A stretch of DNA of 45,840 bases from Candidatus Zemynaea palustris (GTDB lineage: Bacteria > Vulcanimicrobiota > Vulcanimicrobiia > Vulcanimicrobiales > Vulcanimicrobiaceae): NCBI GenBank assembly GCA_003134695.1, contig PLCB01000013.1, positions 22,010-67,849 of the forward strand, read 5' to 3'. The position numbers were made by a program, and so were the translations under genes. The stretch's first letter is position 1; each line of letters begins with the position of its first letter. Shown here piece after piece: positions 3,789-29,100 of this stretch. The notes beneath the pieces are model-generated. The model searched no databases. It saw only the letters and a list, made by a program, of their open reading frames with translations, and was not told where the DNA came from.

Positions 3789-3813
3789 AATGCCCCACTA
3801 GCGGAAAAGCGCC

Positions 3814-5826: not shown

Positions 5827-5935
5827 CGGATACCTCGGGGCAAGTCGACTTCTCTTCGACGGGCTTCGACGTGGAAACTCCGGTCGGGCGAAAGATTCAT
5901 GCCGAATGTGTCGGGGCTCCATGCGTTTGTTGGGG

Positions 5936-5960
5936 CCCCATTCGGCGAAGCCGAATGGGG
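5936..5960. repeat. Perfect 11-bp inverted repeat between M48 and minC genes
   Basis: CCCCATTCGGC pairs exactly with GCCGAATGGGG across a GAA loop. It sits in the 220-bp divergent intergenic region, about 110 bp upstream of the M48 start and 86 bp upstream of minC. There is no T-run on either side, so it is not a canonical terminator. It could be a transcript hairpin, a regulator site or a dispersed REP-like element; copy number cannot be judged from this window. The rest of the 5827-6046 interval shows no gene. Confidence 0.5.
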
Positions 5961-6046
5961 ATAATCGTGTGAGTAACCGGAGATACCTGTGAGTCCGGTG
6001 TGGAGGGCGGAGGTCGGTTTCGGGGCACCGTGGCAGTTGGGGCGGG

Positions 6047-6901
6047 ATGCTGCGCGGCACTAAGACGGGCCTCGAGTTCGTTTTTACCGGAAAAAGCTTC
6101 GAGGAAGCTTGGAACGAGATGGCCGCGCGTCTCGAGGAGCGCCCCGAGTTCTATCGCGGGAGCCGGGCGACCGCCATCTTCGTCGAGCTGATCCCGGAGG
6201 CGGCCGCCGTCGCCGGCTTTCTCGAAGCCGTCCGCGGGCACGGGATCGAGTTGTACGGCCTCTTCGGCGACGAAGCGCTGGCCGAGCTCGCGCGCGGGCA
6301 GGGCCTCGAGTACTTAGGTCCGCCCCAGGCACCCGCCGTCGCGAGCTTCGAGCGCAAGCGCGCCGCCAAGGCCGAGAGCGAGGTCAGGCTCACCGAGAAG
6401 GCGCTCTCTCTGGACGCCGATTTTGCCGGCGCGCGCGCCGAGATCGCGCGGCGCCGTTCGCGCGGCGAAGCGTCGGTGCGGCGTCCCGACTTCACCCCGC
6501 CCGACGCCCCGGCCAACGGCAAGGCGCGGACTCCGCGCGGGGTCGCGGCGGTCGCGCCGGGGCCGTCGACGCTCTACCATCGCGGGACCGTGCGCGGCGG
6601 ACAGTCACTCCAGCAGGTCGGCAACATCGTCGTGATCGGCGACGTGAATCCCGGCGCGGAGCTGGTCGCGAGCGGTGACATAGTGGTGTTCGGGGCGCTG
6701 CGCGGGACGGCACACGCCGGCGCGCAGGGCGATCGCAAGGCGCGCGTTCTCGCGCTCGAGTTGGCCGCGACGCAATTGCGCATCGCGACCTTCATCGCGG
6801 CCGACGACGGCAAGCGTGCGCCGCGCGAGCCGGAGGTCGCGTTTATCAAAGGTGAGGGGATTGCAATCGCTCCGTACGCAAGACACGGTGCACACAAATG
6901 A
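6047..6901 (+). CDS. minC: Septum site-determining protein MinC
   Basis: This 284-residue protein is the FtsZ assembly inhibitor of the Min system, recruited to the membrane by MinD. The N-terminal domain (residues 1-105) has the MinC_N pattern. A variable linker of about 70 residues is rich in Ala, Arg and Pro. The C-terminal beta-helix starts near residue 178 with TLYHRGTVRGGQSL, QVGNIVVIGDVNPGAELVA and GDIVVFGALRGTAHAG, the MinC_C signature. The start at ATG 6047 follows GGGGCGGG. The TGA stop overlaps the next start in an ATGA, indicating translational coupling to minD. It is the first gene of minC-minD-minD-minE-rodA. Confidence 0.93.
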   Translation: MLRGTKTGLEFVFTGKSFEEAWNEMAARLEERPEFYRGSRATAIFVELIPEAAAVAGFLEAVRGHGIELYGLFGDEALAELARGQGLEYLGPPQAPAVASFERKRAAKAESEVRLTEKALSLDADFAGARAEIARRRSRGEASVRRPDFTPPDAPANGKARTPRGVAAVAPGPSTLYHRGTVRGGQSLQQVGNIVVIGDVNPGAELVASGDIVVFGALRGTAHAGAQGDRKARVLALELAATQLRIATFIAADDGKRAPREPEVAFIKGEGIAIAPYARHGAHK

Positions 6902-7689
6902 GCGCGCGCCGCATCGTCGTGACTTCAGGGAAGGGTGGCGTCGGAAAAACGACGACGACGGCCAATCTCGGCGCCGCACTTGCCAAGAAAGGACGCCGCG
7001 TCGTCCTGGTCGACACCGACATCGGGCTGCGCAACCTCGATCTGGTGATGGGCGTCGAAAAGCGCATCGTCTTCGATTTGGTGGAAGTCGTCGAGGGACG
7101 CTGCCAGTTACGTCAAGCGCTCATCCGCGACAAGCGCTTCGAATCGCTCAAGATCTTGGCGGCCGCGCAAACGCGCGACAAGACCGCCGTCTCCGAAGAG
7201 CAGATGGACAAACTGATGGGCGAGCTGGCGAAGTCCAACGACTACGTGATCATCGATTGTCCGGCCGGCATCGAGCACGGTTTTCGCAACGCCGTCGCGG
7301 GAGCACGCGAGGCGATCGTCGTGACGACGCCGGAGGTGAGCGCAATTCGCGACGCCGATCGCGTCGTCGGGAAGCTGCGCGAACGCGAGATTCCGCTACA
7401 GTTGATCATCAACCGCGTCCGTCCGGAGATGGTCAAGGCCGGTGAGATGATGTCGATCGAGGACGTCGGCGAGATCCTGGGCGCCGACATTCTGGGGGTC
7501 ATCCCCGATGACGAAGGGGTCATCGACACGACCAATCGCGGCGAGCCGCTCGTGCTCGACGAAACACAGAAGCTCGCGGCGATTTATGGGCGGATCGCAC
7601 GCCGGCTCGAAGGCGAGGATCTGCCGCTGACCGATCTCGATCCGCCGAGCGTCTTCTCGAAGTTCTTTACGATGTGGAAGGCCGGCTAG
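6898..7689 (+). CDS. minD: Septum site-determining ATPase MinD (copy 1)
   Basis: This 263-residue protein is a deviant-Walker ATPase that binds the membrane as an ATP dimer and carries MinC. The signature is GKGGVGKT at residues 11-18, with the second conserved Lys at 12. DTDIGLRNLDLVMG, VIIDCPAGIEHGFRNA and TTPEVSAIRDADRV match MinD closely. The last residues SVFSKFFTMWKAG form an amphipathic helix that fits the membrane-targeting sequence, so the protein looks fully functional. It overlaps minC by ATGA. The next gene is a second full MinD, which is unusual. Confidence 0.95.
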   Translation: MSARRIVVTSGKGGVGKTTTTANLGAALAKKGRRVVLVDTDIGLRNLDLVMGVEKRIVFDLVEVVEGRCQLRQALIRDKRFESLKILAAAQTRDKTAVSEEQMDKLMGELAKSNDYVIIDCPAGIEHGFRNAVAGAREAIVVTTPEVSAIRDADRVVGKLREREIPLQLIINRVRPEMVKAGEMMSIEDVGEILGADILGVIPDDEGVIDTTNRGEPLVLDETQKLAAIYGRIARRLEGEDLPLTDLDPPSVFSKFFTMWKAG

Positions 7690-7718
7690 CGGCGATGAAT
7701 GTGGAAGGGACTGACCTG

Positions 7719-8582
7719 ATGCACGCATTCGAAGAAGCGCCGCTCGAAGCGGCGAGCGTCGAGGCGCCCGCCGCGGTCGCGCTGGGCCGCGCGATTGTGA
7801 TCACCTCAGGGAAAGGCGGCGTCGGTAAGACGACGACGACGGCGAACGTCGGCGCCGCGCTGGCCGCGCTGGGAAAGCGAGTCGTCCTGGTCGACGCCGA
7901 CATCGGCTTGCGCAACCTCGACATCGTCCTCGGCCTCGAAAACCGGGTCCGCTACCATCTGCTCGACGTCATCGAAGGCAACGTCGAACTCGATGAGGCG
8001 CTCATCCGCGACAAGCGCAGCGCCAATCTCTATCTACTCGCGGCGGCCCAGGCGCGCGAAAAAGAAGATGTCGACGTCGACGAGATGCAGCGCTTGATGG
8101 AGCAATTGCGCGAGCGTTTCGAGTACGTCTTGATCGACTGCCCGGCCGGTATCGAACTCGGCTTCCGCAACGCTGTGGCCGGCGCGCAGCACGCCATCAT
8201 CGTGTGCACGCCGGAGGTTTCCGCGGTGCGCGACGCCGACCGCGTCGTCGGCTTGCTGCCTAACGATTGGTCGCCCGAACTGATCGTCAACCGGTTGCGG
8301 CCGGCCTTGGTGCGTAAGGGCAAGATGCTGTCGGTCGACGACGTGAACGCGATCCTGCGGCTTCCGCTGCTCGGGGTCATTCCGGACGAGCCCGCCGTCA
8401 TCGTCGCGACCAACAAAGGCGAGCCGCCCGCGTTCGATCCCAACTCGCGACTCGGGGCGGCGTATCGCGCCATCGCCGCGCGCATCACGGGTGAGGAAAC
8501 GGCACCGGCGGAGGTGCCGACGGAGCGTGAAGGTGGCGGTTTCTTCTCGAAACTCGGCGCGCTATTCGGAGGGCGCAGTTAG
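7719..8582 (+). CDS. minD: Septum site-determining ATPase MinD (copy 2)
   Basis: The start at ATG 7719 is preferred because GGAAGGG ends nine bases upstream; ATG 7695 is also possible. The result is 287 residues with an extra N-terminal stretch of about 23 residues (MHAFEEAPLEAASVEAP) before the MinD core. GKGGVGKT lies at 31-38, and DADIGLRNLDIVLGLENRV and LIDCPAGIELGFRNAVAGA are intact. A C-terminal amphipathic segment (GGGFFSKLGALFGGRS) again looks like a membrane-targeting helix. It is clearly homologous to the upstream copy throughout but diverged, so it is an old duplication rather than an assembly repeat. Whether the two form heterodimers or have separate partners is not visible. Confidence 0.94.
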   Translation: MHAFEEAPLEAASVEAPAAVALGRAIVITSGKGGVGKTTTTANVGAALAALGKRVVLVDADIGLRNLDIVLGLENRVRYHLLDVIEGNVELDEALIRDKRSANLYLLAAAQAREKEDVDVDEMQRLMEQLRERFEYVLIDCPAGIELGFRNAVAGAQHAIIVCTPEVSAVRDADRVVGLLPNDWSPELIVNRLRPALVRKGKMLSVDDVNAILRLPLLGVIPDEPAVIVATNKGEPPAFDPNSRLGAAYRAIAARITGEETAPAEVPTEREGGGFFSKLGALFGGRS

Positions 8583-8585
8583 CGT

Positions 8586-9038
8586 ATGTTTGAATTTTTC
8601 AAGAACACCGAGGTCTTCAAGACGCTCTTCGGCCGCGAAAGCTCCGGCGCGACCGCGCGGGAGCGCTTGCGGCTGGTCTTGCTCTCCGATCATCTCGCGC
8701 TCGCACCCGACGTCGTCGACGCGCTCAAGGCCGAACTGCTGGAGGTGATCGCGCGCTACGTCGACATCGATCCGGAGATGGCCGAAGTCACGTTCGAGCA
8801 GCGCGAGCGCGAACTCGCGATGCTGGCCAGCGTTCCGATCAAATCGGTTCGCAAAGACCGCCCTTCGGCGCCGGCGCAACGCACCGCGAACGGACGCGCG
8901 CACGCGCCGCTCAATCAGCCGCCGCGCCGGCGTCGCCGGCGCCGCCGCCCGAGCCCGGCCGCGCCCCCAAACGGCGCTCCATCGGACGGCACGTTGCTCG
9001 CGCCGCCCGGTACCTTCGAGAGTTCGGCCCAGGCGTAG
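8586..9038 (+). CDS. minE: Cell division topological specificity factor MinE with basic C-terminal tail
   Basis: This 150-residue protein starts three bases after the second minD stop. Residues 1-90 are a typical MinE. An amphipathic N-terminus (MFEFFKNTEVFKTLFG) is followed by the MinD-binding region ARERLRLVLLSDH. The dimerisation domain follows, with DALKAELLEVIARYVDIDPE and VTFEQRERELAMLASVPI. Residues 91-150 are an extra, low-complexity tail rich in Pro and Arg, including an eight-arginine run. MinE is usually about 85-95 residues, so the tail is unusual. It could bind nucleic acid or anionic lipid; that is speculation. Confidence 0.92.
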   Translation: MFEFFKNTEVFKTLFGRESSGATARERLRLVLLSDHLALAPDVVDALKAELLEVIARYVDIDPEMAEVTFEQRERELAMLASVPIKSVRKDRPSAPAQRTANGRAHAPLNQPPRRRRRRRRPSPAAPPNGAPSDGTLLAPPGTFESSAQA

Positions 9039-9067
9039 ACCCCGTTCGTAAGTAAGGACCTCGGGCG

Positions 9068-10168
9068 GTGGAACGCCCCTGGTACAGCCGGTTCAATTGG
9101 CTCTTGGCCGCGACGACGGTCGCGTTGGCGCTGTTCGGCGACGTCGTGATCCATTCGGCGACGTTGCACAATCCCGACGCATCGAACGAATGGCGCAAGC
9201 AACTCGTCTATATCGCGATCGGCGTCGTGGTGATGGCGTGGTGCGCGTGGGTCGATTACCGGCGCTGGCAGCGTTGGGCCGTCTACCTGTATTCGATCAA
9301 CCTCGGACTGTTGTATTTGGTATGGAAGAGCGGCCATAGCGCGATGGGCGCGCAGCGCTGGATTTCGCTCGGGCCGATCGGGACGTTTCAGCCGTCGGAG
9401 CCGGCGAAACTCGTGCTGGCGATCGTGATCGCGTCGCTGTTGGCGAGGACGATGATCGTTGGGTTCAAAGAGATGTTCTACACGCTCGTGGCCGTCGCGC
9501 TGCCGGCGTTCTTGATCCTCAAGCAGCCCGATCTCGGGACGACGCTCGTCATCTTCGGAATCCTGACGGCGCAATTATTCTTCGGCGTTTCGCGGACCGG
9601 CTATTTTGCCGTGTACGCGGCGCTCGTGGCGGCGGCGGCCGCGTTCGTCGTCGGCACGAATGCCGTGCTCAAGCCGTTCCAGCGAAGTCGCATTTTGATT
9701 TTCCTGCACCCGAACTCCGATCCGCAAGGCGCCGGCTGGAGTCTCAGCCAGTCGAAAATTGCCGTCGGCAGCGGCGAGCTTTTCGGAAAGGGCCTCACCC
9801 ACGGGACGCAGACGCAACTGGATTTCGTGCCGGAACATTCGCGGGATTTCATCTTCAGCGTCGTCGGCGAGGAACTCGGGTACGTCGGCGCCATCGCGCT
9901 CATCTGCGCGTATGCGATCATCTTGTTCGGCGCGGTCGGGGCCGTCTTCGCTTCCCGCGATCGGTTCGCGCTGCTCCTTTCGGTCGGAATCGTCGCGCTG
10001 CTGGCGTTCCACGTCGTCGTCAACATCGGAATGACCGTCGGGATCATGCCGATCACCGGCATCCCGCTGCCCTTCATGTCCTACGGCGGCAGCGCGATCA
10101 TCACGGATTTCGCGGCGATCGGGATCTTGCTCAACGTCCACATGCAGCGTGACCGCCTGGTGTTCTAG
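9068..10168 (+). CDS. rodA: SEDS peptidoglycan polymerase RodA
   Basis: This 366-residue polytopic membrane protein of the FtsW/RodA/SpoVE family polymerises lipid II glycan chains in the elongasome with a class B PBP. It starts at GTG 9068, 29 bp after minE, with AAGGA upstream. About ten membrane helices are visible. Family motifs include LKQPDLGTTLV, GKGLTHGTQTQLDFVPEHSR, DFIFSVVGEELGYVGA and PLPFMSYGGSAIITD. The conserved Asp in the HSRDFIF segment corresponds to the residue proposed to be catalytic in SEDS proteins. RodA rather than FtsW is inferred from the short tails and min-operon linkage; the paired PBP2 is not in the window. Confidence 0.92.
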   Translation: MERPWYSRFNWLLAATTVALALFGDVVIHSATLHNPDASNEWRKQLVYIAIGVVVMAWCAWVDYRRWQRWAVYLYSINLGLLYLVWKSGHSAMGAQRWISLGPIGTFQPSEPAKLVLAIVIASLLARTMIVGFKEMFYTLVAVALPAFLILKQPDLGTTLVIFGILTAQLFFGVSRTGYFAVYAALVAAAAAFVVGTNAVLKPFQRSRILIFLHPNSDPQGAGWSLSQSKIAVGSGELFGKGLTHGTQTQLDFVPEHSRDFIFSVVGEELGYVGAIALICAYAIILFGAVGAVFASRDRFALLLSVGIVALLAFHVVVNIGMTVGIMPITGIPLPFMSYGGSAIITDFAAIGILLNVHMQRDRLVF

Positions 10169-10182
10169 CGGTTGTTGCTCGT

Positions 10183-10372
10183 CGGCGTGACATAGCCGCC
10201 TCGGGACGACGACTCGGTTCCTTCCGTGGAACCTCGTGCGTCTCGACTGCTCGTCGCTCTCGCCCTCCGGGGCTCGCCGGCGCGACATAGCCCCCTCGGG
10301 ACGACGACTCGGTTCCTTCCGTGGAACCTCGTGCGTCTCGACTACTCGTCGCTTTCGCCCTCCGGGCTTCGC
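10183..10372. repeat. Two tandem ~95-bp direct repeats with internal hairpins
   Basis: Bases 10183-10277 and 10278-10372 are near-identical copies offset by 95 bp. Both contain GACATAGCC, CTCGGGACGACGACTCGG, a GGTTCC-TTCCGT-GGAACC hairpin (first copy 10216-10233), then TCTCGACT and a CCCTCCGGG segment. They fill the start of the 513-bp gap between rodA and the RNase gene. There are no convincing open frames with coding character across it. The unit could be a dispersed intergenic element, a small-RNA template or a remnant of mobile DNA. It is not CRISPR-like because the copies abut with no spacers. Confidence 0.75.
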
Positions 10373-10681
10373 TCCTCGTAGACGCCCTCGGTTGCAACGC
10401 CGCGCCGGCTCGCTAAACGCGAAAAGGACCTCCTGCCGCCCTTCAGGAACCCTAGAGAACATCCGATTTCAAGTTATAGCGTACCGCGTCGCAGCGCTCG
10501 GCGCTTCCGTGGACGCACTTCCGTCAATCGGAATGACAAATTTGGTCTCATCGTTCGTTCGGGACCGCGCCTTCGGCGCCAGGACTCAGGACGAACGAGG
10601 TGGCCGCACCGCCGCTCCACCGAGGAGCAGGCAAAACTGAATTCATGCGGCGCCATCGCGCCGCTCCAAGCGAAAGGCTAC
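10373..10681 (+). promoter_or_regulatory. Leader region upstream of the RNase E/G gene
   Basis: This roughly 300-bp stretch holds no supported gene. Two inverted repeats stand out. TCGTTCGT near 10550 pairs with ACGAACGA near 10592, flanking a further GC-rich fold. GCGGCGC at 10647-10653 pairs with GCGCCGC at 10658-10664 across CATC, just before the ribosome site AAAGG at 10673-10677 and the ATG at 10682. RNase E is known in other bacteria to autoregulate through its structured 5' leader, so a similar role is plausible, but it is not shown by the sequence. Confidence 0.35.
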
Positions 10682-13318
10682 ATGCCAACAGAAATCCTCA
10701 TATCCAGCGACCCCTGGGAAAATCGGGTTGCAATCCTTGAGGACGGCCAACTGGCCGAAATCTACTTCGAACGCGAAGAAAAAGTCATCGGGTCGATCTA
10801 TAAGGGCAAAGTGATGAACGTGCTCCCCGGAATGGGAGCGAGCTTCGTCGACATCGGCCTCGGCCGCAACGCCTTCTTGTACGTCGACGACATCAATAAG
10901 ACGCCGCTCAACATCGGCGACGTCGAGATCACGCAAGGCCGCTCCGGCTGGACGATCACCGAAAAGATTTCCAAAGGCGACGACGTCCTCGTCCAAATCG
11001 TCAAAGAACCACGCGGGCTCAAGGGCGCGCGTATCTCGACCAACATCTCCTTGCCCGGCCGCTATCTGATCCTGATGCCGACCGGCAAGTACTCCGGTGT
11101 CTCGCGCAAGATCGAAAGCGCCGAAGAGCGCAACCGCCTCAAGAACATCATGAAGATGATTCGGCCGGAAGGGATGGCGACGGTCGTCCGCACGGCCGCC
11201 GCCGGCGTCAGCCAAGCCGAGTTGCTCGCCGACCTCGGCGTCCTGATCCGCATGTGGCACGGCATTCTCGAAAGCTACAAGCGCGCACCCGCGCCGTCGC
11301 TGATCCACAAGGACATGAATCTCGTCTACAAAGCCGCGCGCGATTTCATCACGCCCGAAGTCGAACGGGTCCTGATCGACGACGCCGAGGAATACGAGAA
11401 GGTTCGCGACTTCATGCGGCTGCTCGGCCCACAGTACGTCGAGCGCATCCAGCACTACAATGACGGCCGGGCGCTCTTCAAAGACTTCAAGGTCGACGAA
11501 GAAGTCCAAAAGCTTCTGCGGCCCAAGATCAACCTACCGGCGGGTGGTTCGATCGTGATCGAGTCGACCGAAGCGCTGACCGTCATCGACGTCAACAGCG
11601 GCAAGTTCACGGGCGGAAAGAATCTCGAAGACACGATCGTCAAGACGAACATCGAGGCCGCGAGCGAAATCGCGCGTCAAGTGCGACTGCGCGACATCGG
11701 CGGCATCATTGTCTGCGACTTCATCGACATGTCAAGCGAGGCGTCGCGCAACAGGGTGCTGGCGACACTTGAAACCGGGCTGCGCAAGGACCGCACGCGC
11801 ACGACGATTCAATCGTTCTCGGCGCTCGGACTCCTCGAATTCACCCGCAAGCGCGTCGGAAAAGATCTTTCCGGCCAATTGCGCGGTTCGTGCCCGACCT
11901 GCAGTGGACTCGGCTCGGTGATGTCGCCCGAGACCGTCGCGATCGAGGCCTTCCGCACGGTGCGCCGTCTCGGTCACGAACACGACAACGGCAAGGCCAA
12001 AGTGAGGCCGATCGAAGTGATCTCGGCGCCGACCGTCGGCGCGCAGATCGAGTATTGGTATGAGAACGAGCGCGAGGCGCTCGAAAAAGAGATCGGTACG
12101 AAGGTCGCGGTTCGCGTCGACTCGACCTTGCCGCCCGAGAAAACCAAGATCAGCCTGGTCGACGATCCGAAAATGTTCTCGGCGCCGCCCGACGTGCGCG
12201 TCGGCGATGAGATCGAAATTGAATTGCTGCATGCGCGCTTGCCGAATCCGACCTCGGCGCTGGCGATCGTCGGCGATCGCTTGATCGAAGTCGAGAACGC
12301 CGCCAACGCGATCGGTCAAACCATCAGGATCAAGGTCATCGACGTCGACGAAGACGGCAACATCCTCGCCGAGCCACGCACGCCGGTCGAGGCACCGGCC
12401 GAAGGAAAGAAACGCCGCCGGCGCGGTGGCCGCGGGCGGAAGAAAGAGCTCACGCCGGCGGAGCAGGAAGAGCAATTGCGCGAACTCGCCGAGGAGGCCG
12501 CGAAGGGCATCGGCGAGCGGACCGCCATCGGCATCTCGACGACCGCCGAAGCGGAAGCCGAGGAGGCGGAAGTGCGCGCGCACGCGGCGACCGCGCCGCC
12601 GCTCGCCACGGTCACGCCGATTCACGTCCCCGATTACGCCGCGGTCGAACCCGACGGCGAGCACCGCGCCTACGCATCGTATGGCGGGAACGGTACGCAT
12701 CGTCGCCGGCGGCGGCGGCGCCGGCGTGGCGGAGCCGGTGGTGGCGGCGACGTCGCGACGATGGCCGCGATCGCGGCCGCGGCCGGCGTGCCCATGCCGC
12801 CGGGCCTCGAGCGCGGCCATGCGGACCAAGAGCATCCAGCGACGCCTCCAGCCGAGGGCGGCGGTCGCCGTCGCCGCCGGCGTCGTCGCCGTCGCGGACG
12901 CGGTGGCACCGGAGGCGAAGCCGCTCCGGATCGTACGATCTTCCGCGTCGGAGCCGACGGTGCAGCGGAACCGACCGGCCGGACCGCGCCGCCGGAACCG
13001 TCGCACGCGATCGCGCGCGTCGAGCGCCGCCCAGCGTCGGTAGCGGTCGAGCCGCCGCCCCCGAGCCTCTCCCTCCCCACAGAGCCGGCGAAGTTCGCCA
13101 AACCCGCACGCGGCCGCCGGCCGCGCGCGAGTGCCGGCGGATCGCTCGAAGGCGCGAGTCAAGCCGCGCTGCCTTTGCCGCAGCCTATGGCGGCCGAGGC
13201 TCCCAAGCGCCGGGGCCGTCCGCGGAAAACCGCGGCCGCGTCGGTCGATGGAGAGGCGGCGGCCGAAAAACCGAAGCGGACTCGGAAGAAAGCGCCGCGC
13301 ACGACGACGATCGTCTAA
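10682..13318 (+). CDS. rne: Rne/Rng family ribonuclease (RNase E/G-like) with long basic tail
   Basis: This 878-residue endoribonuclease acts in mRNA decay and rRNA/tRNA processing. The S1 RNA-binding region spans about residues 38-120 (IGSIYKGKVMNVLPGMGASF). The DNase I-like catalytic region has Asp303 in TVIDVNSGKFTGG and Asp346 in VCDFIDM. The zinc-link is CPTC at 404-407. These positions coincide with the E. coli RNase E residues. From about residue 580 the protein becomes low-complexity and strongly basic, with KKRRRRGGRGRKK, nine- and ten-arginine runs separated by Gly/Ala segments, and an AT-hook-like KRRGRPRKT. The tail probably binds RNA or scaffolds partners. A terminator follows the gene. 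Confidence 0.93.
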   Translation: MPTEILISSDPWENRVAILEDGQLAEIYFEREEKVIGSIYKGKVMNVLPGMGASFVDIGLGRNAFLYVDDINKTPLNIGDVEITQGRSGWTITEKISKGDDVLVQIVKEPRGLKGARISTNISLPGRYLILMPTGKYSGVSRKIESAEERNRLKNIMKMIRPEGMATVVRTAAAGVSQAELLADLGVLIRMWHGILESYKRAPAPSLIHKDMNLVYKAARDFITPEVERVLIDDAEEYEKVRDFMRLLGPQYVERIQHYNDGRALFKDFKVDEEVQKLLRPKINLPAGGSIVIESTEALTVIDVNSGKFTGGKNLEDTIVKTNIEAASEIARQVRLRDIGGIIVCDFIDMSSEASRNRVLATLETGLRKDRTRTTIQSFSALGLLEFTRKRVGKDLSGQLRGSCPTCSGLGSVMSPETVAIEAFRTVRRLGHEHDNGKAKVRPIEVISAPTVGAQIEYWYENEREALEKEIGTKVAVRVDSTLPPEKTKISLVDDPKMFSAPPDVRVGDEIEIELLHARLPNPTSALAIVGDRLIEVENAANAIGQTIRIKVIDVDEDGNILAEPRTPVEAPAEGKKRRRRGGRGRKKELTPAEQEEQLRELAEEAAKGIGERTAIGISTTAEAEAEEAEVRAHAATAPPLATVTPIHVPDYAAVEPDGEHRAYASYGGNGTHRRRRRRRRRGGAGGGGDVATMAAIAAAAGVPMPPGLERGHADQEHPATPPAEGGGRRRRRRRRRRGRGGTGGEAAPDRTIFRVGADGAAEPTGRTAPPEPSHAIARVERRPASVAVEPPPPSLSLPTEPAKFAKPARGRRPRASAGGSLEGASQAALPLPQPMAAEAPKRRGRPRKTAAASVDGEAAAEKPKRTRKKAPRTTTIV

Positions 13319-21324: not shown

Positions 21325-21355
21325 TGTTGGGGAGCCTGGGTTCAAGGTTAGGCCG

Positions 21356-22921
21356 TTGCAGATCTTCGTTTCATATGCGCGCAATGACGATCTCCCGCCG
21401 CTGGAATCCAGCGACGCGAAGGGCTTCGTAACGGCGCTCTACGGCCATCTCAACTATCAATTCAAGGCGCTCGGCCCGCCGATGCCGGTCCTGTGGCGCG
21501 ACACGCGTTCGATCGGGCGCAGCGATCAATTCGATCCGATCATCGAAGGCGCGATCGGCGATTCCGACCTCTTTCTGGTCATTCTCTCACGTAATTGGCT
21601 GTCGCGCGAGTTTTGTCGCAAGGAGCTCGAACTGTTCAAGCAGCGCTGGGCGAAGGAAGGCGAGGCGGGCATAAAGCGACGCATCGTCGTCGTCGCCAAA
21701 CAGCACATCGAGTTCGAAGATCGGCCGGCGCTGTTACAAGGCCAAGAAGGCTACTGGTTTTACCGGCGCGACGCGGATGAAGGCGTCGGGATCGAACAGG
21801 AGTTTTTCAGCGGCGGAAAGCCTCAGGGCGAATACTACGACTTGGTCAAGCGGCTCGCCGTCGACCTGTGGCGCCGCGCCCAGTCTGAGACGCCGCCGGT
21901 TCCGGGGAAGGGAGGCGGAGGTGCCGAGAAAGAGACGAAAGCCGATGACGCTCGCACGGTCTACCTCGCAAAACCCGCCGCCGACATGCGTTCGGCATAT
22001 CTGCGGCTCGTCGACGAACTCGAACAGCGCGGCTACCGCGTCGTCCCGGAGCGCGGTACGGAGATACCCTACGACGGCAGCGCGCCGGCGTTCGTCCGAA
22101 GCGAGCTCGCCAAAGCCGAGGCTTCGATCCACGTGCTCGGCGAGAAGGCCGGCTACACGCCGGAGGACAGCGAGCCCATCGTCAAGCTGCAATTGCAACT
22201 GGCGGCGGAACGTGTCTCAAAATCGGATGCCGTGGCCACCGGAGGCGTACCGTTTCGGCGCATCGTCTGGGCGCCGCGGGTCATCGTCGACGAGCAAGGT
22301 GCCGCGAGCGCCGTCGAACGCGATCCGCTGGTCGTACTGTCGCGATTCGACAAGCAGGCCGAGAGCGACAAAATCGAGGGCAGCGAACTGAGCAAGTTCG
22401 CGGAGTTCGTGATCCAGCATCTCGACCGCACGGCGCCGCTACCGCCCGCGCCGCCACCGCTCGGAGAGACGGACGCGCGCCGGCTCTACGTCTACTATCA
22501 TCCCGAAGATCGCAAGCTCGCGCTCGATTTCGGAAAACTTCTGCAAGAACACGAGATCGAACCGGTCTGGCCGGCATTTCAGGGCGATCCGGCGCAGATC
22601 CGCGCGTACCATCGCGAAAAACTACAAGAATGCGACGCGGTCGTTTTGTGCTGGGGCTCCGCCGCCGATCTCTGGGTCAAAGCGAGCGCGCACGAACTTC
22701 GCAATTGGCGCGAACTCGGCCGCGAAAAACGATTCGACCTGCGCGGCCTGTTGGCCGGACCCCCACCGGGCGAGTTCAAGGACGTCCTGATGGAGCTCCC
22801 GCCGCGCAGCGAGATCGACGTCGTCCTCGATCTGACCAAGGATGAGGAGCTCACCACCGCGGGGGTCGAGCCGCTGATCAAGCGGACGCGCGGCGCTTCG
22901 CCTCCGGCCGGCGAAGCCTAA
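21356..22921 (+). CDS. TIR-domain protein with two further TIR-like modules
   Basis: This 521-residue protein starts at TTG 21356, directly before the first TIR strand (QIFVSYARND). Residues 1-175 are a TIR domain, with the BB-loop region around RDTRSIGRSDQFDP, SDLFLVILSRNWLSREFC, and Glu90 in CRKELELF at the position of the catalytic Glu in NAD-cleaving TIRs. A Gly/Glu-rich linker follows (182-200). Residues 200-290 are a second Rossmann-like unit (MRSAYLRLVDELEQRGYRVV, FVRSELAKAEASIHVLGE). Residues 375-510 are a third (RLYVYYHPEDRKLALDFGKL, CDAVVLCWGSA), resembling a divergent TIR/SEFIR fold. It is followed after one base by the NTPase gene. NADase or signalling activity is inferred. Confidence 0.85.
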   Translation: MQIFVSYARNDDLPPLESSDAKGFVTALYGHLNYQFKALGPPMPVLWRDTRSIGRSDQFDPIIEGAIGDSDLFLVILSRNWLSREFCRKELELFKQRWAKEGEAGIKRRIVVVAKQHIEFEDRPALLQGQEGYWFYRRDADEGVGIEQEFFSGGKPQGEYYDLVKRLAVDLWRRAQSETPPVPGKGGGGAEKETKADDARTVYLAKPAADMRSAYLRLVDELEQRGYRVVPERGTEIPYDGSAPAFVRSELAKAEASIHVLGEKAGYTPEDSEPIVKLQLQLAAERVSKSDAVATGGVPFRRIVWAPRVIVDEQGAASAVERDPLVVLSRFDKQAESDKIEGSELSKFAEFVIQHLDRTAPLPPAPPPLGETDARRLYVYYHPEDRKLALDFGKLLQEHEIEPVWPAFQGDPAQIRAYHREKLQECDAVVLCWGSAADLWVKASAHELRNWRELGREKRFDLRGLLAGPPPGEFKDVLMELPPRSEIDVVLDLTKDEELTTAGVEPLIKRTRGASPPAGEA

Positions 22922-22922
22922 G

Positions 22923-23756
22923 ATGCACCTTTCGGCGGAGCGGCCTTTTCCCGGACTGCGTCCGTTCGGGTACGAGGACCGTGAATATTTCTTCGGCCGC
23001 GAGGACCAAGTCTACGCGCTGTACCGTCTGCTCGAACACAGCCGTTTCATCGCGGTCATCGGCAGCTCCGGAAGTGGAAAGTCGTCGCTCGTTCGGGCCG
23101 GCCTGCTGCCGCTGATTCAAGAGGAGAGCGAAGGCAAGGGCGGGCGCGACTGGCGCTGGGTCACGTTCACGCCGGGCGACGCCCCCATCAATCGTTTGGC
23201 GGACGCGCTTTTGACGCTTGCGCCAAAAGAGGAACTCGCCGACGAGCGCCAGATCCGGCGCGAGCGGATCGGATTTGCATTGCGCCGGTCGAGCTTCGGG
23301 CTAGGCGAGGCCCTCGACGAGATACCGAATCTTGCCGGGACGTCGCTGCTGCTCGTTGTCGACCAATTCGAAGAGCTATTTCGGTTCGGCGGCGATCGCA
23401 TTGGCGATGCGGTGTGGCGGGACGAAGCGGCCAACTTCGTTCAACTGTTGCTCGAGATCGGACGCACGCGCAGCCGTTCGGTCTACGTCCTGATCACGAT
23501 GCGTTCCGACTTCATCGGCGATTGCGCGCGCTTTCACGGACTGCCCGAGGCCGTGAGCGCCTCTCAATTCCTGGTTCCGTCGCTGACGCGGGACCAGCGT
23601 GAGGACGTCATTCGCGAGCCTATCAAAAAAGCCGGTGCCGCGATCGAACCGGCCTTGGTCGAGCGGCTGCTCAACGATATCGGCAACGAGCTCGACGAAT
23701 TGCCGGTGCTGCAGCACTGCCTCTCGCGCATTTGGGAGCGGTCGGGGAAGCCGTGA
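22923..23756 (+). CDS. nSTAND1-type NTPase, N-terminal half
   Basis: This 277-residue protein contains the P-loop part of a novel-STAND NTPase. PFPGLRPFGYEDREYFFGRE is the characteristic nSTAND1 entry. Walker A is GSSGSGKS at 47-54, Walker B is LLLVVDQFEELF near 142-153, and the sensor region is LITMRSDFIGDCARF. It ends at LPVLQHCLSRIWERSGKP, precisely where homologues continue into the winged-helix part. That part is encoded by the next gene in another frame. The stop overlaps a GTG start (GTGA at 23753-23756), so either two coupled polypeptides are made or a -1 frame change has broken one gene. STAND NTPases act as ligand-triggered oligomerising switches. Confidence 0.85.
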   Translation: MHLSAERPFPGLRPFGYEDREYFFGREDQVYALYRLLEHSRFIAVIGSSGSGKSSLVRAGLLPLIQEESEGKGGRDWRWVTFTPGDAPINRLADALLTLAPKEELADERQIRRERIGFALRRSSFGLGEALDEIPNLAGTSLLLVVDQFEELFRFGGDRIGDAVWRDEAANFVQLLLEIGRTRSRSVYVLITMRSDFIGDCARFHGLPEAVSASQFLVPSLTRDQREDVIREPIKKAGAAIEPALVERLLNDIGNELDELPVLQHCLSRIWERSGKP

Positions 23757-26700
23757 GCGAAAAGAGCCGGAAGACTGCGCGGAATTTGACGCTCGAAGAC
23801 TACCAAGCCGTCGGTGGGATCGACCACGCGCTCTCTGCGCACGCTGACGAAGTCATGGCGTCCTTGCCCGGCTTGGAACTCATCGTCGAGCAAGTTTTTC
23901 AAGCGCTCAGCGAGGTCGACAAGGAAGGTCGCGCGACGCGGCGCGCGCTGCGTTTTTCGCAATTGCTGGCGGAGACCGGCGCTCCCAGGAAGCAATTGAT
24001 GCAAGTCCTCGATCGCTTCCGCGCGGACGACTGTTCGTTCATCGTACCGTCGCTCTCCGCCGTCCCCGAACTGCGCCCCGACACGCGAATCGACGTCGGC
24101 CACGAGGCGCTGTTGCGGCGCTGGGATCGTATCAGTTCGGAGACGACCGAGGAACTCACCGATGGTCGGGTCCGAATGGGCTGGCTCCAGCACGAGGAGA
24201 GCGCCGGCCGTTTTTACCGCGCCCTGCTGGCCCTGCTGGAAGGCGAGTTCGGATCGGGAAAGGTCACGCTGCCGCTCGATCAGGTCGAAGAACGTTGGCG
24301 TTGGTGGAAATCCCGGCCCCGCACGGCGGCCTGGGCCGAGCGCTACGGCGGCGGCCTCGACAAGGTCGAGCGGCTCTTCAAAGACAGCCGCGCCGCGCTC
24401 GAAGCGCAGCGCTTGCGAGACGCGGAAGCAGAACGGCGCGAGCGCGAAGCCGAACGGCGCAAGATCGAGGCCGAAGAAGCCGCGAAACGCGAGCGCCTCG
24501 AACACCAAGCCGAAGTCGAGCGCATGCGCGCCGAGGCCGCGCACCGGCTGGTGGCGCGTACGCGAGTCGCTGCGATCGCGATGGCGGCGATCGCACTGAT
24601 CACCGTCGTGCTCGGTATCCTCTCCATTCGTTTTGGCTTGCAAGCCAATCGCGCGACGAGCGAAGCCTTGGCGGCGCTCGCAGCGGCCGACAAGGCGAAG
24701 CGCCAAGCGGAGACCGAGAAAACGCGCGCCGAGTATAACCTCGCGCGTCTTCAGACGATGACCAAGATTGCCGACCGCGAACGGCTGCGCGCGGTCCAGC
24801 AGCAGAAGATCGCCGAGAAGCAAAGTGCGGCGGCGGTCGCGGCGGCGTTCGACGCCCAGCAGCAGCGGGCCGCGGCTGAGGGACAACGCAAGGTTGCACT
24901 CGAGCAACGCGGGATCGCGATCGCCCAGAGCGCCGAAGCGATCCGGCAGCGCGCCGCCGTGTTCCAACAAGCCGGACGCGACGCATTCTTCAGTGGAGAC
25001 AACGACTCGGCGGCGGTCTATTTCGCGGCCGCTTACGCCGATAAGCCGCAGGATCCGGCGCTGAAGCTCGTGCTCGGAGAGGCGCTCGACAAGCTCTCGA
25101 TTCGCGGCGGCTCGATTCATGCGCCCGGTTCGATTCACGCCCACGGCGCGCTGATCACGACGGTCAAATTCAATCCCAACGCAAAGTCGCGGCAGATCGC
25201 GACGGCCGGGGCGGATGGCACGATCAAGCTCTGGGGTGCATCCGGAAATCTGGTCCACACGTTCACCGACCAATCGAGCGTCATCACGTCGCTGGCCTTC
25301 GATCCGACGGGGCGTTATCTCGCGACCACCGGCGCCGACGGATCCGTCAAGATTCGCGATTTGCGAGCGATCACGCCCAAGACCGCCGCCGCTCCGCTCG
25401 AGCTCGATGGCCATACGCGTCGAATCAACGCCGTTGTCTTCAGCCACGACGGGACTCGCCTGGCGACGGCGAGCGGCGACGGGAACGTCAAAATCTGGCA
25501 AAGCAGCACCGGCAAACTCCTCAAACAGCTGCACGTCGAGAACGTCGGCTATCAAGTCAACGACGTCGCCTTCACGCACGACGATCGATTGGTCGTCGCA
25601 GCCGCGAGCGACGGTGCGTTGCGTGAATGGACCGCCGCAACCGGCGAGCTCGTATGGGATTCAGGCGCGAGCCAAGCCCCGCTCGACAAGGTTGCGACGC
25701 TGGTCCATATCGCCGTCGCGCCGGACGGGAAGTCGGCGGTCGCGGGCGCTGTGGACGGAACCGTCGTCGCGTACGATCTCGCCGGAAAGAAACGGCTCTG
25801 GCTGCGACGCGACGACCGCGGTGCGATCAACGCCGTCGCCTTCGATCCCTCCGGGAAGATGCTGCTCGCCGGGAGCGATGATGGAACGGCGCGCATGTAC
25901 GACGCGCAAAGCGGAGAGCCGAAGGCCGTCTTCTCTCGTTCCGCGGCGATCGGCGACTCGGGAAATCAGCTTGCGGTCGTCAGTGCGCTCTTCAGCCCTT
26001 CGAACAGTTGCATCGCGACGACCTACGCCGACGGGTCGGTGAGTTTTTGGACGCTCAACGGCGAGACGATCGCGGAGCTGCGCGCGCGCGGCGGGAACGC
26101 CGGTGCCGCCGACTTCTCGTCGGACGGCACGTTGTTCGTCACGGGCGGAAGAAACGGCGACCTGTTTCTGTGGCATCCTCCCAGCACGCTCGTTCGCGCG
26201 GACGCCGCCCACGCAGGATCGATCGATTCGATTGCGGTCGACCGCCAAGGTGACATCCTGACCGCCAGCCGCGACGGAACCGCGGCACTCTGGCGGCCCG
26301 GCGCGACGTTGACGCGCGAACGCGTCCTGCGACATTCGACCGGCGCTTGGGTCGTCGCCGCGAGCTTTAGCCGTGATGGCAAGAAGATCGTTACCGCCGG
26401 CGGCACGCAGGTCAAGACCTGGAGCGTGGCCGCTCCGAACGGTCCACTTCCGTTGTCGTCGCTCGACGCCGGCGCAGGCCAGACGCCGCAACGCTTCAGC
26501 GACGCTACCTTCGCCGGCGATCGTTCCGACGCCGTCATCGTCGCCGAGACGAACGCCGGCACGAAGGATTTCGATAATGCGGCCGGCCGGTGGTTCATGA
26601 TGTCGGCCGACGGCAAACGCGTTCTCTCGAAAGAGCCGCTGCTCGCGAGTGATCCGGCGGGCCAGCCAGAGATCCGAACGCTGCTCTCCAGCCGCGACAC

Positions 26701-27397
26701 ACGCTACGTGCTCGCCGTGAGCGGGCGTGGGACGGCCGTTCTCACCTCGCTCGCCAAGAACCAGCGATTCGAGTGGGACGACCCGCTCGTCGCCGAGGCG
26801 GCGTCGGCGCACGCACGCGATCTGTTTGCCTTAGGCGGCGTCGACGGTAGCCTCAACCTCAGGTCGGCCGCCGGGAGTCATCTCAAGCTCGGCGCGCAGC
26901 AGGGTCGAATCTCGGCCCTCGCGTTCTCGCCCGACGACCGATGGCTCGGGTCGGCGGCAAGCGGCGATCTTCTCGGAATGATCTGGGACGTCCAAAGCGG
27001 TCGCCTGCAGTCGACCCTGCGAGGCCACAAAGGCGAGGTCACGTCGATCGCATTTTCGCCCGGAATCGAATCGTTCGTCTTGACGACGTCGTTGGACGGC
27101 AGTGCCAGAATGTGGGACCGCGACACGGGCGACTTGCTCGCTTCGGTTTCGGTTCCTGGATCGCTCGTGCGCAGCGCCGCGTTTACCGCGGACGGATCTG
27201 CGGTCGTGATCGGCGCGGCCAACGGCAATCTCTACCTGTGGCGCGTCCGGGACGACGTCCCGCCGCCGAGTCAAACGGCGAAGAATCTCGTGGCCGCGCT
27301 CAAGCGCGGCGAGGTGCAGAGGGGTAGCGCCAATCAGTTGTTGAGCCAAGCGGTGGAGCGCCTGAACGTCGCAAGCAAGATCGGAAACGTCCCATGA
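23753..27397 (+). CDS. STAND winged-helix/transmembrane/WD40 protein, C-terminal half
   Basis: The GTG at 23753 overlaps the upstream stop and gives 1214 residues; the frame is open back to TTG 23732. It begins with the missing STAND part: NLTLEDYQAVGGIDHALSAH, a helical lid, and IDVGHEALLRRW. A charged coiled coil follows at about 215-265. One membrane helix lies near 270-295 (VAAIAMAAIALITVVLGIL), then more coiled coil to about 410. From about 460 to 1170 there are many WD40 repeats (IATAGADGTIKLW, LATASGDGNVKIW, LTTSLDGSARMWD), probably two propellers. The WD40 part is probably the sensor. Its stop overlaps the next ATG (ATGA). Confidence 0.85.
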   Translation: MSEKSRKTARNLTLEDYQAVGGIDHALSAHADEVMASLPGLELIVEQVFQALSEVDKEGRATRRALRFSQLLAETGAPRKQLMQVLDRFRADDCSFIVPSLSAVPELRPDTRIDVGHEALLRRWDRISSETTEELTDGRVRMGWLQHEESAGRFYRALLALLEGEFGSGKVTLPLDQVEERWRWWKSRPRTAAWAERYGGGLDKVERLFKDSRAALEAQRLRDAEAERREREAERRKIEAEEAAKRERLEHQAEVERMRAEAAHRLVARTRVAAIAMAAIALITVVLGILSIRFGLQANRATSEALAALAAADKAKRQAETEKTRAEYNLARLQTMTKIADRERLRAVQQQKIAEKQSAAAVAAAFDAQQQRAAAEGQRKVALEQRGIAIAQSAEAIRQRAAVFQQAGRDAFFSGDNDSAAVYFAAAYADKPQDPALKLVLGEALDKLSIRGGSIHAPGSIHAHGALITTVKFNPNAKSRQIATAGADGTIKLWGASGNLVHTFTDQSSVITSLAFDPTGRYLATTGADGSVKIRDLRAITPKTAAAPLELDGHTRRINAVVFSHDGTRLATASGDGNVKIWQSSTGKLLKQLHVENVGYQVNDVAFTHDDRLVVAAASDGALREWTAATGELVWDSGASQAPLDKVATLVHIAVAPDGKSAVAGAVDGTVVAYDLAGKKRLWLRRDDRGAINAVAFDPSGKMLLAGSDDGTARMYDAQSGEPKAVFSRSAAIGDSGNQLAVVSALFSPSNSCIATTYADGSVSFWTLNGETIAELRARGGNAGAADFSSDGTLFVTGGRNGDLFLWHPPSTLVRADAAHAGSIDSIAVDRQGDILTASRDGTAALWRPGATLTRERVLRHSTGAWVVAASFSRDGKKIVTAGGTQVKTWSVAAPNGPLPLSSLDAGAGQTPQRFSDATFAGDRSDAVIVAETNAGTKDFDNAAGRWFMMSADGKRVLSKEPLLASDPAGQPEIRTLLSSRDTRYVLAVSGRGTAVLTSLAKNQRFEWDDPLVAEAASAHARDLFALGGVDGSLNLRSAAGSHLKLGAQQGRISALAFSPDDRWLGSAASGDLLGMIWDVQSGRLQSTLRGHKGEVTSIAFSPGIESFVLTTSLDGSARMWDRDTGDLLASVSVPGSLVRSAAFTADGSAVVIGAANGNLYLWRVRDDVPPPSQTAKNLVAALKRGEVQRGSANQLLSQAVERLNVASKIGNVP

Positions 27398-29100
27398 GGC
27401 CGCGCAGATTCAGGACGATTGCCGGGGCCGTCCAAGTGCTCGCCTTCGCGCTCATTTCGGTCGCGACGACGTCACCGGTGGCCGCGGACGACGTCTATCT
27501 TCGGAGCGGGCGCTTCAATGCGGACCACTACGACCTCGTGATGCCGCTCTGGCTCGCCGACATGACCATCGCCAGAACCTATAACTCCTCGGACTTCAAG
27601 GGGATCTTCGGGACCGGTTGGGAGACCCGGCTCGAAACGAATCTGGAAGTTCAGGACGACGGTTCGGTTGTGGTTCACGAATACGGCGGGGGGGCCGCCA
27701 ACGAGTTCAAGCCGACCAACAAACCCACGCGATCCGAGGGACTGATCGCCGCCGAGCTGGTCAACGTCGCCGACGAGAGCGGCCGATTCGGAAGCGACGC
27801 CGAGATGACTGCGTACAAGACCTGGTTGCAGCTCAATCACGCCGGAGAGTGGGGAAGGTTTCGCGATCTCGGCATGGTCGTTCCGCAACAGTCGCACGCG
27901 GGCGAGACGTTTTCGAGCGGCGCGTTCGGAGAGAACCAAGTCATCACCAGGGTCCCGGAGGGCTACCAGCGAGCGACCGCAGGGGGCGGGAAGTTCGAAG
28001 CGTTCGATTTTTCGGGCCGGCTGCAGCGCATCTGGGACGTCAACCGCAACTTCATCGCGCTGCGCTACGCAAACGGGCGCCTGGCCGAGATATCCGACAA
28101 TTTTGGGAACCGGTTCGTCTTCTCGTTCAACAAACTCGGCTTCGTGGAGAAGATCGCGGCGTCCAAGGGCCGGACCGCGCGCTTCGAATACGACGGCGCC
28201 TACCTGGTAAAGGTGACCGACGCCAGCGGGAGCTCGTACCGCTATACGTACGACGCTTTGCACAGGATGACCGGAATCGGCTATCCCGACGGCAAGTGGA
28301 AAAAAATCGCGTACTATTCCAAGAAGACCGATAACGTGAGTTCCGATCTCATGGTCAAACGGATCGACGATCACGACGGAAGCAGCACGAGCTATGTCTA
28401 TAACCGGGTGGACACCGGCCACTTCAACGTCGATTTGACGACGACGGACGCCGCCGGCAAGGCTACGCACGAAGAATACCGGTACGTGTTGCGTCCCAAT
28501 TCCGGGAGTTGGGATCTCGAATCCCTTTGGGTCGACGGAAAGCCGACCCAACAGAGCGTTTACAACGTGGATGGAAAAGAGGTCAAGCGGACGACGCCTT
28601 CCGGGACGATACTCTACGGCTACGATCAGTTCGGGCGCGAGGTCAGCGCCGAGCGCTCGACGGGGACAACGAGTTGGACTTATGATGAGGCGACCGGCCG
28701 AGTTTCGGCGGCAAAAATATCCGGCGCGAACCCGAAATCGTGGCAGTTCGAGTATGACACGAGAGGCAATCTCGCGCATGCCAAAGTCAGCGACGGGAAC
28801 GACGTCACGCTCAGTTACGACGAATACGGGCGGAGAATCGCGGCGGCGGACAACGGCCAGACCATTCGGTTCGCGTACGACCAGTTGTTCGAGCCGGTGA
28901 AGATTTCGCTCGACGGCGGCGGAACGGCGGAGGTCGTTTACAACGAGATCGGCGAGATCAAGCGCGTCTCCGGGAGCAACGGCGGCGCGGTCGACCCGAA
29001 ACTGAAGGCGTTGATGGTGACCATTCAGACGACGCTCACTCCGACCGGGGAGCAGCTGCTGAGCAACTTAACGGCCCTCGCCAAAGCCGCCGGAAACTAG
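27394..29100 (+). CDS. Secreted DUF6531/YD-repeat (RHS-like) protein without a toxin domain
   Basis: This 568-residue protein starts inside the stop of the WD40 gene (ATGA). A signal peptide (residues 1-32) ends at VAADD. Residues 33-105 match the DUF6531 N-terminus of RHS proteins (DLVMPLWLADMTIARTYNSS, GIFGTGWETRLETNLEV). From about 190 to 530 there are YD-type repeats (YDALHRMTGIGYPDGKW, YGYDQFGREVSAERS, YDTRGNLAHAKVSDG, YDEYGRRIAAADNG). The RHS core that caps the shell and a variable toxin tip are absent; it ends in a short helical tail. Ending just 11 bp from a convergent gene, it looks complete. An envelope or extracellular partner of the TIR-STAND module is inferred. Confidence 0.85.
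   Translation: MRPRRFRTIAGAVQVLAFALISVATTSPVAADDVYLRSGRFNADHYDLVMPLWLADMTIARTYNSSDFKGIFGTGWETRLETNLEVQDDGSVVVHEYGGGAANEFKPTNKPTRSEGLIAAELVNVADESGRFGSDAEMTAYKTWLQLNHAGEWGRFRDLGMVVPQQSHAGETFSSGAFGENQVITRVPEGYQRATAGGGKFEAFDFSGRLQRIWDVNRNFIALRYANGRLAEISDNFGNRFVFSFNKLGFVEKIAASKGRTARFEYDGAYLVKVTDASGSSYRYTYDALHRMTGIGYPDGKWKKIAYYSKKTDNVSSDLMVKRIDDHDGSSTSYVYNRVDTGHFNVDLTTTDAAGKATHEEYRYVLRPNSGSWDLESLWVDGKPTQQSVYNVDGKEVKRTTPSGTILYGYDQFGREVSAERSTGTTSWTYDEATGRVSAAKISGANPKSWQFEYDTRGNLAHAKVSDGNDVTLSYDEYGRRIAAADNGQTIRFAYDQLFEPVKISLDGGGTAEVVYNEIGEIKRVSGSNGGAVDPKLKALMVTIQTTLTPTGEQLLSNLTALAKAAGN

What the first reader, a model, noticed from the sequence alone, without database searches (positions are those of the whole stretch)
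21356..29100. Four-gene TIR / nSTAND1 / WD40 / YD-repeat operon: candidate conflict system with a secreted partner
A TIR multi-domain protein, an nSTAND1 P-loop module, a winged-helix/TM/WD40 protein and a secreted DUF6531/YD-repeat protein follow each other with a 1-bp gap, a GTGA overlap and an ATGA overlap. TIR effectors gated by STAND NTPases with WD40 sensors are known as prokaryotic immune or programmed-death modules. I do not know of one translationally coupled to an exported RHS-like shell protein. A plausible model: the YD protein or its ligand at the envelope is sensed by the membrane-anchored WD40 protein, which triggers the TIR NADase.
Basis: partly seen in the sequence, partly recalled or inferred. 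Interest (0 to 1): 0.85.

Follow-up and report, generated by a model that had tools for sequence, protein, structure and literature searches.

The report
TIR–STAND membrane receptor with exported partner
A soil bacterium carries a probable self-destruct or immune circuit: a TIR enzyme, a membrane-spanning switch protein with an external WD40 sensor, and an exported repeat protein that in its phylum is found with only that type of sensor, which suggests that the pair recognises something at the cell surface.

Summary
The four ORFs are real, but the "nSTAND1" and "WD40" ORFs are two halves of one gene: Pfam nSTAND1 runs 1-240 in the first and 239-360 in the second, and five relatives have one 1437-1457-aa ORF. 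The operon is TIR / nSTAND1-TM-WD40 / YD, with a frameshift in this copy.

Synteny is real: seven genomes in two families of Ca. Eremiobacterota, with a 4- or 11-nt WD40/YD overlap. Among 23 TIR-nSTAND1 loci with readable downstream DNA the sensor is swappable: canonical WD40, degenerate propeller, or TPR. YD follows WD40 7/7 and the others 0/16. G090 carries WD40+YD on a different TIR/NTPase core, with the crossover just before the TM. So YD belongs with the WD40 receptor.

One TM puts the sensor outside, and YD has a signal peptide. TIR-nSTAND1 genomes nearly always carry a SLOG-SLATT effector (22/23 versus 14/126).

Best reading: a transmembrane NLR-like receptor with an exported RHS-like co-sensor drives a TIR NAD+ signal to membrane effectors. 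Anatomy is shown; sensing, signal and killing are inferred. This copy may be broken (frameshift, ATG to AGG).

The parts
21356..22921 (+). TIR protein gene, 521 aa, three alpha/beta (TIR-like) domains; TTG start, because the ATG of relatives is AGG here (21350-21352)
21362..21766 (+). TIR_2 domain (residues 3-137)
   Evidence: Pfam TIR_2 1e-15
21623..21625 (+). codon of Glu90, the putative catalytic glutamate
   Evidence: Glu in 21 of 22 homologues; role by analogy with TIR NADases
22923..23756 (+). N-terminal part of the nSTAND1 NTPase gene (Walker A GSSGSGKSS), ending at a frameshift
   Evidence: nSTAND1 positions 1-240
23745..23756 (+). stretch within which the reading frame changes; the 'GTGA overlap'
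   Evidence: profile break; loop between conserved blocks compared with ten relatives
23757..27397 (+). rest of the same gene: end of nSTAND1, winged helix, coiled coil, TM, WD40
   Evidence: nSTAND1 positions 239-360; intact in L011, L084-L087
24566..24622 (+). single transmembrane segment (VAAIAMAAIALITVVLGIL), positive N-side
   Evidence: hydropathy scan
25139..27241 (+). canonical WD40 propeller region, predicted outside the inner membrane
   Evidence: Pfam WD40 6e-68, topology
27394..27397 (+). ATGA overlap of WD40 stop and YD start, conserved in family f1 (11 nt in family f3)
27394..29100 (+). exported YD/RHS-repeat protein, 568 aa, no toxin domain
27394..27486 (+). predicted signal peptide of the YD protein
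   Evidence: sequence and hydropathy
27490..27684 (+). DUF6531 domain
   Evidence: Pfam 1.6e-9
27937..28971 (+). RHS-like beta-meander (residues 182-526)
   Evidence: AlphaFold2 model and Foldseek

Best explanation
This is one version of a modular, membrane-spanning conflict system. An nSTAND1 NTPase in the cytoplasm is joined through one TM helix to an interchangeable sensor outside the inner membrane, and a TIR protein encoded just upstream is the output enzyme. In this version the sensor is a WD40 propeller, and the operon also exports a short RHS/YD-repeat protein that accompanies only that sensor, most likely as its co-receptor, ligand carrier or guarded bait. When the WD40-YD pair is disturbed by an attack at the envelope, the NTPase would oligomerise and activate the TIR, which would cleave NAD+. 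The product would kill by NAD+ depletion or act as a nucleotide signal for the SLOG-SLATT membrane effector and its patatin partner. Shown by sequence: gene order, domains, predicted topology, sensor swapping, the WD40-YD link, SLOG-SLATT co-occurrence. Inferred: sensing, oligomerisation, NAD+ cleavage, signal relay, cell death. In this genome the NTPase gene is frameshifted, so this copy may be inactive or mis-assembled.
For: TIR / nSTAND1-WD40 / YD in seven genomes of two families. YD follows WD40 sensors 7/7 and other sensors 0/16. G090 has WD40+YD on a core that is otherwise that of TPR-type loci (TIR 59%, NTPase 75% identical to G098; 25% and 43% to the window), with the crossover just before the TM. 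One TM between NTPase and sensor, and a signal peptide on YD. The eighth YD gene adjoins another membrane TIR receptor gene. Glu90 conserved in 21/22 and Walker A intact. SLOG-SLATT in 22/23 TIR-nSTAND1 genomes versus 14/126 others, and beside TIR genes of several designs. SLATT as nucleotide-responsive pore: PMC7159879.
Against: No interaction, activity or immunity data. Seven WD40-YD loci of related bacteria are at least two independent combinations, not seven. No complex could be modelled. SLOG-SLATT co-occurrence is inflated by relatedness, and in the window's genome it is unlinked. The window's own NTPase gene is frameshifted and its TIR has lost the usual ATG. A 30% YD relative in Terasakiella has no TIR nearby.
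Confidence: 0.5

Rival explanations
1. TIR-nSTAND1 is an ordinary STAND defence system, and the YD protein is an exported adhesin or antibacterial protein that is only co-transcribed with it.
For: TIR-nSTAND1 works without YD in 16 loci and in Caballeronia; YD/RHS proteins are common surface and competition proteins.
Against: YD moves with the WD40 sensor across two cores, overlaps its gene in all seven loci, has no toxin domain, and is absent from every other TIR-nSTAND1 genome.
Confidence: 0.25
2. YD is not a sensor partner but an exported effector or processed factor of the same system, acting outside the cell after activation (as the secreted TPR-CHAT protein encoded after it in G073 might).
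For: A secreted TPR-CHAT gene follows YD in G073, and a secreted caspase-domain gene lies near the Terasakiella relative.
Against: The link is to the sensor, not to the TIR/NTPase; effectors would be expected to be independent of sensor type. CHAT occurs after YD in only one of seven loci.
Confidence: 0.12
3. The window copy is a decaying remnant: a frameshifted NTPase and a TIR without its ATG, so nothing here works in this organism.
For: Frameshift inside nSTAND1 and ATG to AGG at the TIR start. No homologue found in the one other genome of the genus, 74% complete.
Against: All other frames stay open over more than 7 kb and the catalytic and Walker motifs are intact. The genome is a 61-contig assembly, where a single-base indel can be an error. 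A two-chain NTPase by GTGA reinitiation is not excluded. Does not touch the intact relatives.
Confidence: 0.3
4. The nSTAND1/WD40 break is a programmed frameshift or a true split into two coupled proteins.
For: GTGA stop-start overlap lies in a variable loop; G090 is broken too.
Against: Five WD40-YD relatives and the other sensor types have one ORF; the G090 break is at a different place.
Confidence: 0.05

Closest known systems
STAND (nSTAND1) NTPase conflict systems of Kaur, Burroughs, Iyer and Aravind (PMC7159879, PMC8195603)
   Same: nSTAND1 NTPase, C-terminal superstructure repeats as sensor, TIR as effector
   Different: Effector is a separate TIR gene, the sensor follows a TM and is predicted outside, and an exported YD partner is present; neither paper mentions RHS or YD
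Thoeris (ThsB TIR with ThsA)
   Same: Catalytic TIR and a SLOG-domain protein in the same genome, often adjacent
   Different: The SLOG protein carries SLATT 2TM, not SIR2 or Macro; sensing is through a STAND receptor; the signal is unknown
Avs and other bacterial NLR-like STAND proteins
   Same: NTPase with an interchangeable C-terminal sensor
   Different: Those have fused effectors and cytoplasmic sensors (general knowledge); here a TM separates NTPase and sensor
DGR-diversified nSTAND1/NACHT sensors (PMC10907252)
   Same: nSTAND1 proteins with variable antigen-sensor domains, some predicted in the periplasm
   Different: Sensors are C-type lectins diversified by a retroelement; no WD40-YD pairing described
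CHASE2-TM-TIR proteins with secreted FecR/TPR partner (L145, L149, L150; this study)
   Same: External sensor domain wired across the membrane to TIR; one relative has a YD gene in the operon (G002)
   Different: No STAND NTPase; sensor and TIR are in one protein
RHS/YD-repeat polymorphic toxins, teneurins
   Same: DUF6531, YD repeats, RHS-like predicted fold
   Different: 568 aa, signal peptide, no RHS core signature over cut-off, no C-terminal toxin

Membership tests
STAND (nSTAND1) NTPase conflict system | nSTAND1 P-loop NTPase with Walker A | tested here: met
   Pfam nSTAND1 over cut-off in both halves; GSSGSGKSS
STAND (nSTAND1) NTPase conflict system | C-terminal superstructure-forming repeats as sensor, variable between loci | tested here: met
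   WD40, degenerate propeller or TPR
STAND (nSTAND1) NTPase conflict system | associated effector domain | tested here: met
   adjacent TIR gene in the loci seen
STAND (nSTAND1) NTPase conflict system | protects against phage or other attack | not testable with these tools
   no experiment
TIR NADase | TIR fold with catalytic glutamate | tested here: met
   Pfam TIR_2, Foldseek to SARM1, SPARTA, RPP1, Glu90 in 21/22
TIR NADase | NAD+ cleavage | not testable with these tools
   no assay
Thoeris | ThsA-type effector: SIR2-SLOG or Macro-2TM | tested here: not met
   partner is SLOG plus SLATT/DUF4231; no SIR2 or Macro match in it
Thoeris | cADPR-type signal made by TIR activates the effector | not testable with these tools
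   only co-occurrence
RHS polymorphic toxin | DUF6531 and YD repeats | tested here: met
RHS polymorphic toxin | full RHS core with variable C-terminal toxin | tested here: not met
   568 aa; RHS_core 53 bits against cut-off 2000; no toxin match; tail alignable between relatives except G073
Known anti-phage systems of PADLOC-DB 2.0 | match to a system protein model | tested here: not met
   no model for the TIR or YD protein; only a repeat-type and a weak hit for the NTPase protein

The most novel reading that the evidence does not exclude
A bacterial transmembrane NLR: an nSTAND1 receptor whose WD40 ectodomain uses an exported RHS/YD protein as a dedicated co-receptor or guarded decoy at the envelope and switches on a cytoplasmic TIR whose product opens SLOG-SLATT membrane effectors, with WD40+YD as a recombining recognition cassette.
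Probability: 0.4. Interest if true: 0.82.

Novelty: new variant of a known kind. Interest (0 to 1): 0.62.

Why it matters
Bacterial NLR-like sensors whose trigger is known act inside the cell (general knowledge). A STAND receptor that spans the membrane and keeps its sensor outside, with its own exported recognition partner, would mean that bacteria can launch a TIR response from the envelope, nearer to the surface receptors of plants and animals. Natural sensor swaps give matched controls: nearly the same TIR/NTPase core with WD40+YD (G090) or with TPR and no YD (G098), so the role of YD can be tested directly. The recurrent pairing of TIR genes with SLOG-SLATT also offers a testable new effector arm for NAD+-derived signals.

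Tried and rejected
Rejected: 'four genes' (nSTAND1 is split by a frameshift); synteny limited to this genome; YD as a toxin (no toxin domain); YD as a free-standing gene in the phylum (eight genuine copies, all beside TIR genes; two weak further hits, G111 and G137, lie in large ORFs). Led nowhere or gave little: a scan of 84,980 species by YD gave four records of the loci already known, a 30% relative in Terasakiella and one RHS protein; plasmid YD hits are weak and mostly ordinary RHS proteins; phages gave no TIR match; PADLOC gave nothing for TIR or YD; promoter and terminator scans of the operon were within about one standard deviation of shuffles; a genome search centred on Terasakiella was not possible; Burroughs et al. 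2015 was not held; no paper on Eremiobacterota TIR defence was found. My annotation script lost its 'flipped' label, so coordinates of L084-L086 were recomputed, and two tree scripts failed on regular expressions.

Full report
OBSERVATION. Pfam identifies TIR_2, nSTAND1, WD40 and DUF6531/RHS repeats. The key correction: nSTAND1 (379 positions) matches the second ORF at 1-240 and the third at 239-360. They are one nSTAND1-winged helix-TM-WD40 gene broken by a frameshift near 23745-23756, in a variable loop between CLSRIWER and LTLEDYQ. Relatives have a single ORF of 1437-1457 aa. One relative, G090, is also broken, but elsewhere, so the split is not a conserved design. The window's TIR gene has AGG where relatives have ATG.

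SYNTENY. The phylum set has 149 genomes. Strong YD homologues are in eight. Seven have TIR / nSTAND1-WD40 / YD in that order: G000 (window), G073, G090, G116, G117, G118 and G123, in two families and five genera. The YD start overlaps the WD40 stop by 4 nt (family f1) or 11 nt (family f3). The eighth, G002, has YD between a secreted TPR protein and a membrane TIR protein related to CHASE2-TM-TIR proteins (29% over 594 aa).

SWAPPABLE SENSORS. TIR-nSTAND1 systems occur in about 23 phylum genomes. The region after the TM is one of several kinds: canonical WD40, a degenerate propeller often ending in ACLMAGRSLT...MYRW, or TPR. Of the loci with readable downstream DNA, YD follows WD40 in 7 of 7 and the others in 0 of 16 (Fisher p 4e-6; the loci are related, so this p is too small). 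Full-length WD40 homologues were found only in those seven genomes. Trees of TIR and of the NTPase core give two well-supported clades. G090 sits in clade B with TPR-type loci (TIR 59%, core 75% identical to G098) but has the WD40 sensor (48% to the window) and YD. Identity switches partner just before the TM. G081 is a second swap: core A with the degenerate propeller of clade B. So YD moves with the WD40 sensor and not with the TIR or the NTPase. This is the strongest evidence that the two work together.

TOPOLOGY. Nearly every nSTAND1 protein has one strong hydrophobic segment between NTPase and sensor, in most with a net charge of +2 to +5 on the N-side. This predicts NTPase inside and sensor outside. 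YD proteins start with signal-peptide-like sequences. Both partners are thus predicted on the same side of the membrane.

EFFECTOR ARM. Upstream of the TIR in the f3 loci is a protein with SLOG and SLATT/DUF4231 regions, often with a patatin phospholipase gene. Homologues are in 36 of 149 genomes: 22 of 23 with TIR-nSTAND1, against 14 of 126 without (relatedness inflates this). In the window's genome it is unlinked, on contig C42, followed by patatin. SLOG-SLATT genes also sit beside TIR-NB-ARC-TPR, CHASE2-TIR and lone TIR genes. SLATT has been predicted to be a pore-forming effector that responds to nucleotide signals (PMC7159879), and in Thoeris a SLOG effector is activated by TIR-made cADPR isomers (PMC11204291). 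A TIR to SLOG-SLATT relay is therefore the likeliest output; here it is inference. A Caballeronia plasmid carries SLOG-SLATT / TIR / nSTAND1-TM-degenerate propeller without YD, so the core is not confined to this phylum.

STRUCTURES. The YD model (mean pLDDT 67.5; residues 1-105 poor) is a long beta-meander whose best PDB matches are Rhs cores, then teneurins and Tc-type RHS components. Its length and the missing core signature and toxin make it a partial RHS-like protein. The TIR model has three alpha/beta domains and matches plant, SPARTA and SARM1 TIRs. Glu90 is conserved in 21 of 22; the exception, G087, has a second TIR gene.

LITERATURE. The nSTAND1 clade is named in PMC8195603. nSTAND1 sensors, some predicted periplasmic, are described in PMC10907252. 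No paper in the held library was found that joins TIR/STAND with YD/RHS proteins, and the two conflict-system papers do not mention RHS or YD repeats. Most subscription papers are not held, so absence is weak evidence.

VERDICT. Function is unproven, and the window copy may be inactive.

Noticed in passing
L011 (G073) 4909-7818, minus strand: A secreted TPR-CHAT (caspase-like) protein gene follows YD directly in one of the seven loci.
   Followed up: partly
L094 (Terasakiella) 6776-11161: A 526-aa secreted YD relative lies about 1.4 kb from a secreted caspase-domain gene, with no TIR gene recognised nearby.
   Followed up: partly
L145, L149, L150: CHASE2-TM-TIR proteins with a secreted TPR (FecR in one) partner sit beside SLOG-SLATT genes: a second external-receptor TIR design.
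   Followed up: partly
G000:C42:19978-21564 (L142): SLOG-SLATT and patatin genes next to each other in the window's genome, unlinked to the TIR operon.
   Followed up: partly
G000:C42:90123-90572 (L012): Another TIR-type gene of the window's genome matches the third domain of the window TIR protein at 41% identity.
   Followed up: no
L060 (G087) 2927-5211: Two tandem TIR genes: the second has Asp in place of the catalytic Glu, the first (210 aa) keeps it.
   Followed up: no
L157 (Caballeronia sp. SBC2 plasmid pSBC2-4) 7770-15170: DUF4231 / TIR / nSTAND1-propeller operon on a mobilizable plasmid of another phylum.
   Followed up: partly
L009 (G090) about 5540-5630, oriented with TIR on +: Frameshift in the nSTAND1-WD40 gene close to the core/sensor recombination crossover.
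   Followed up: partly
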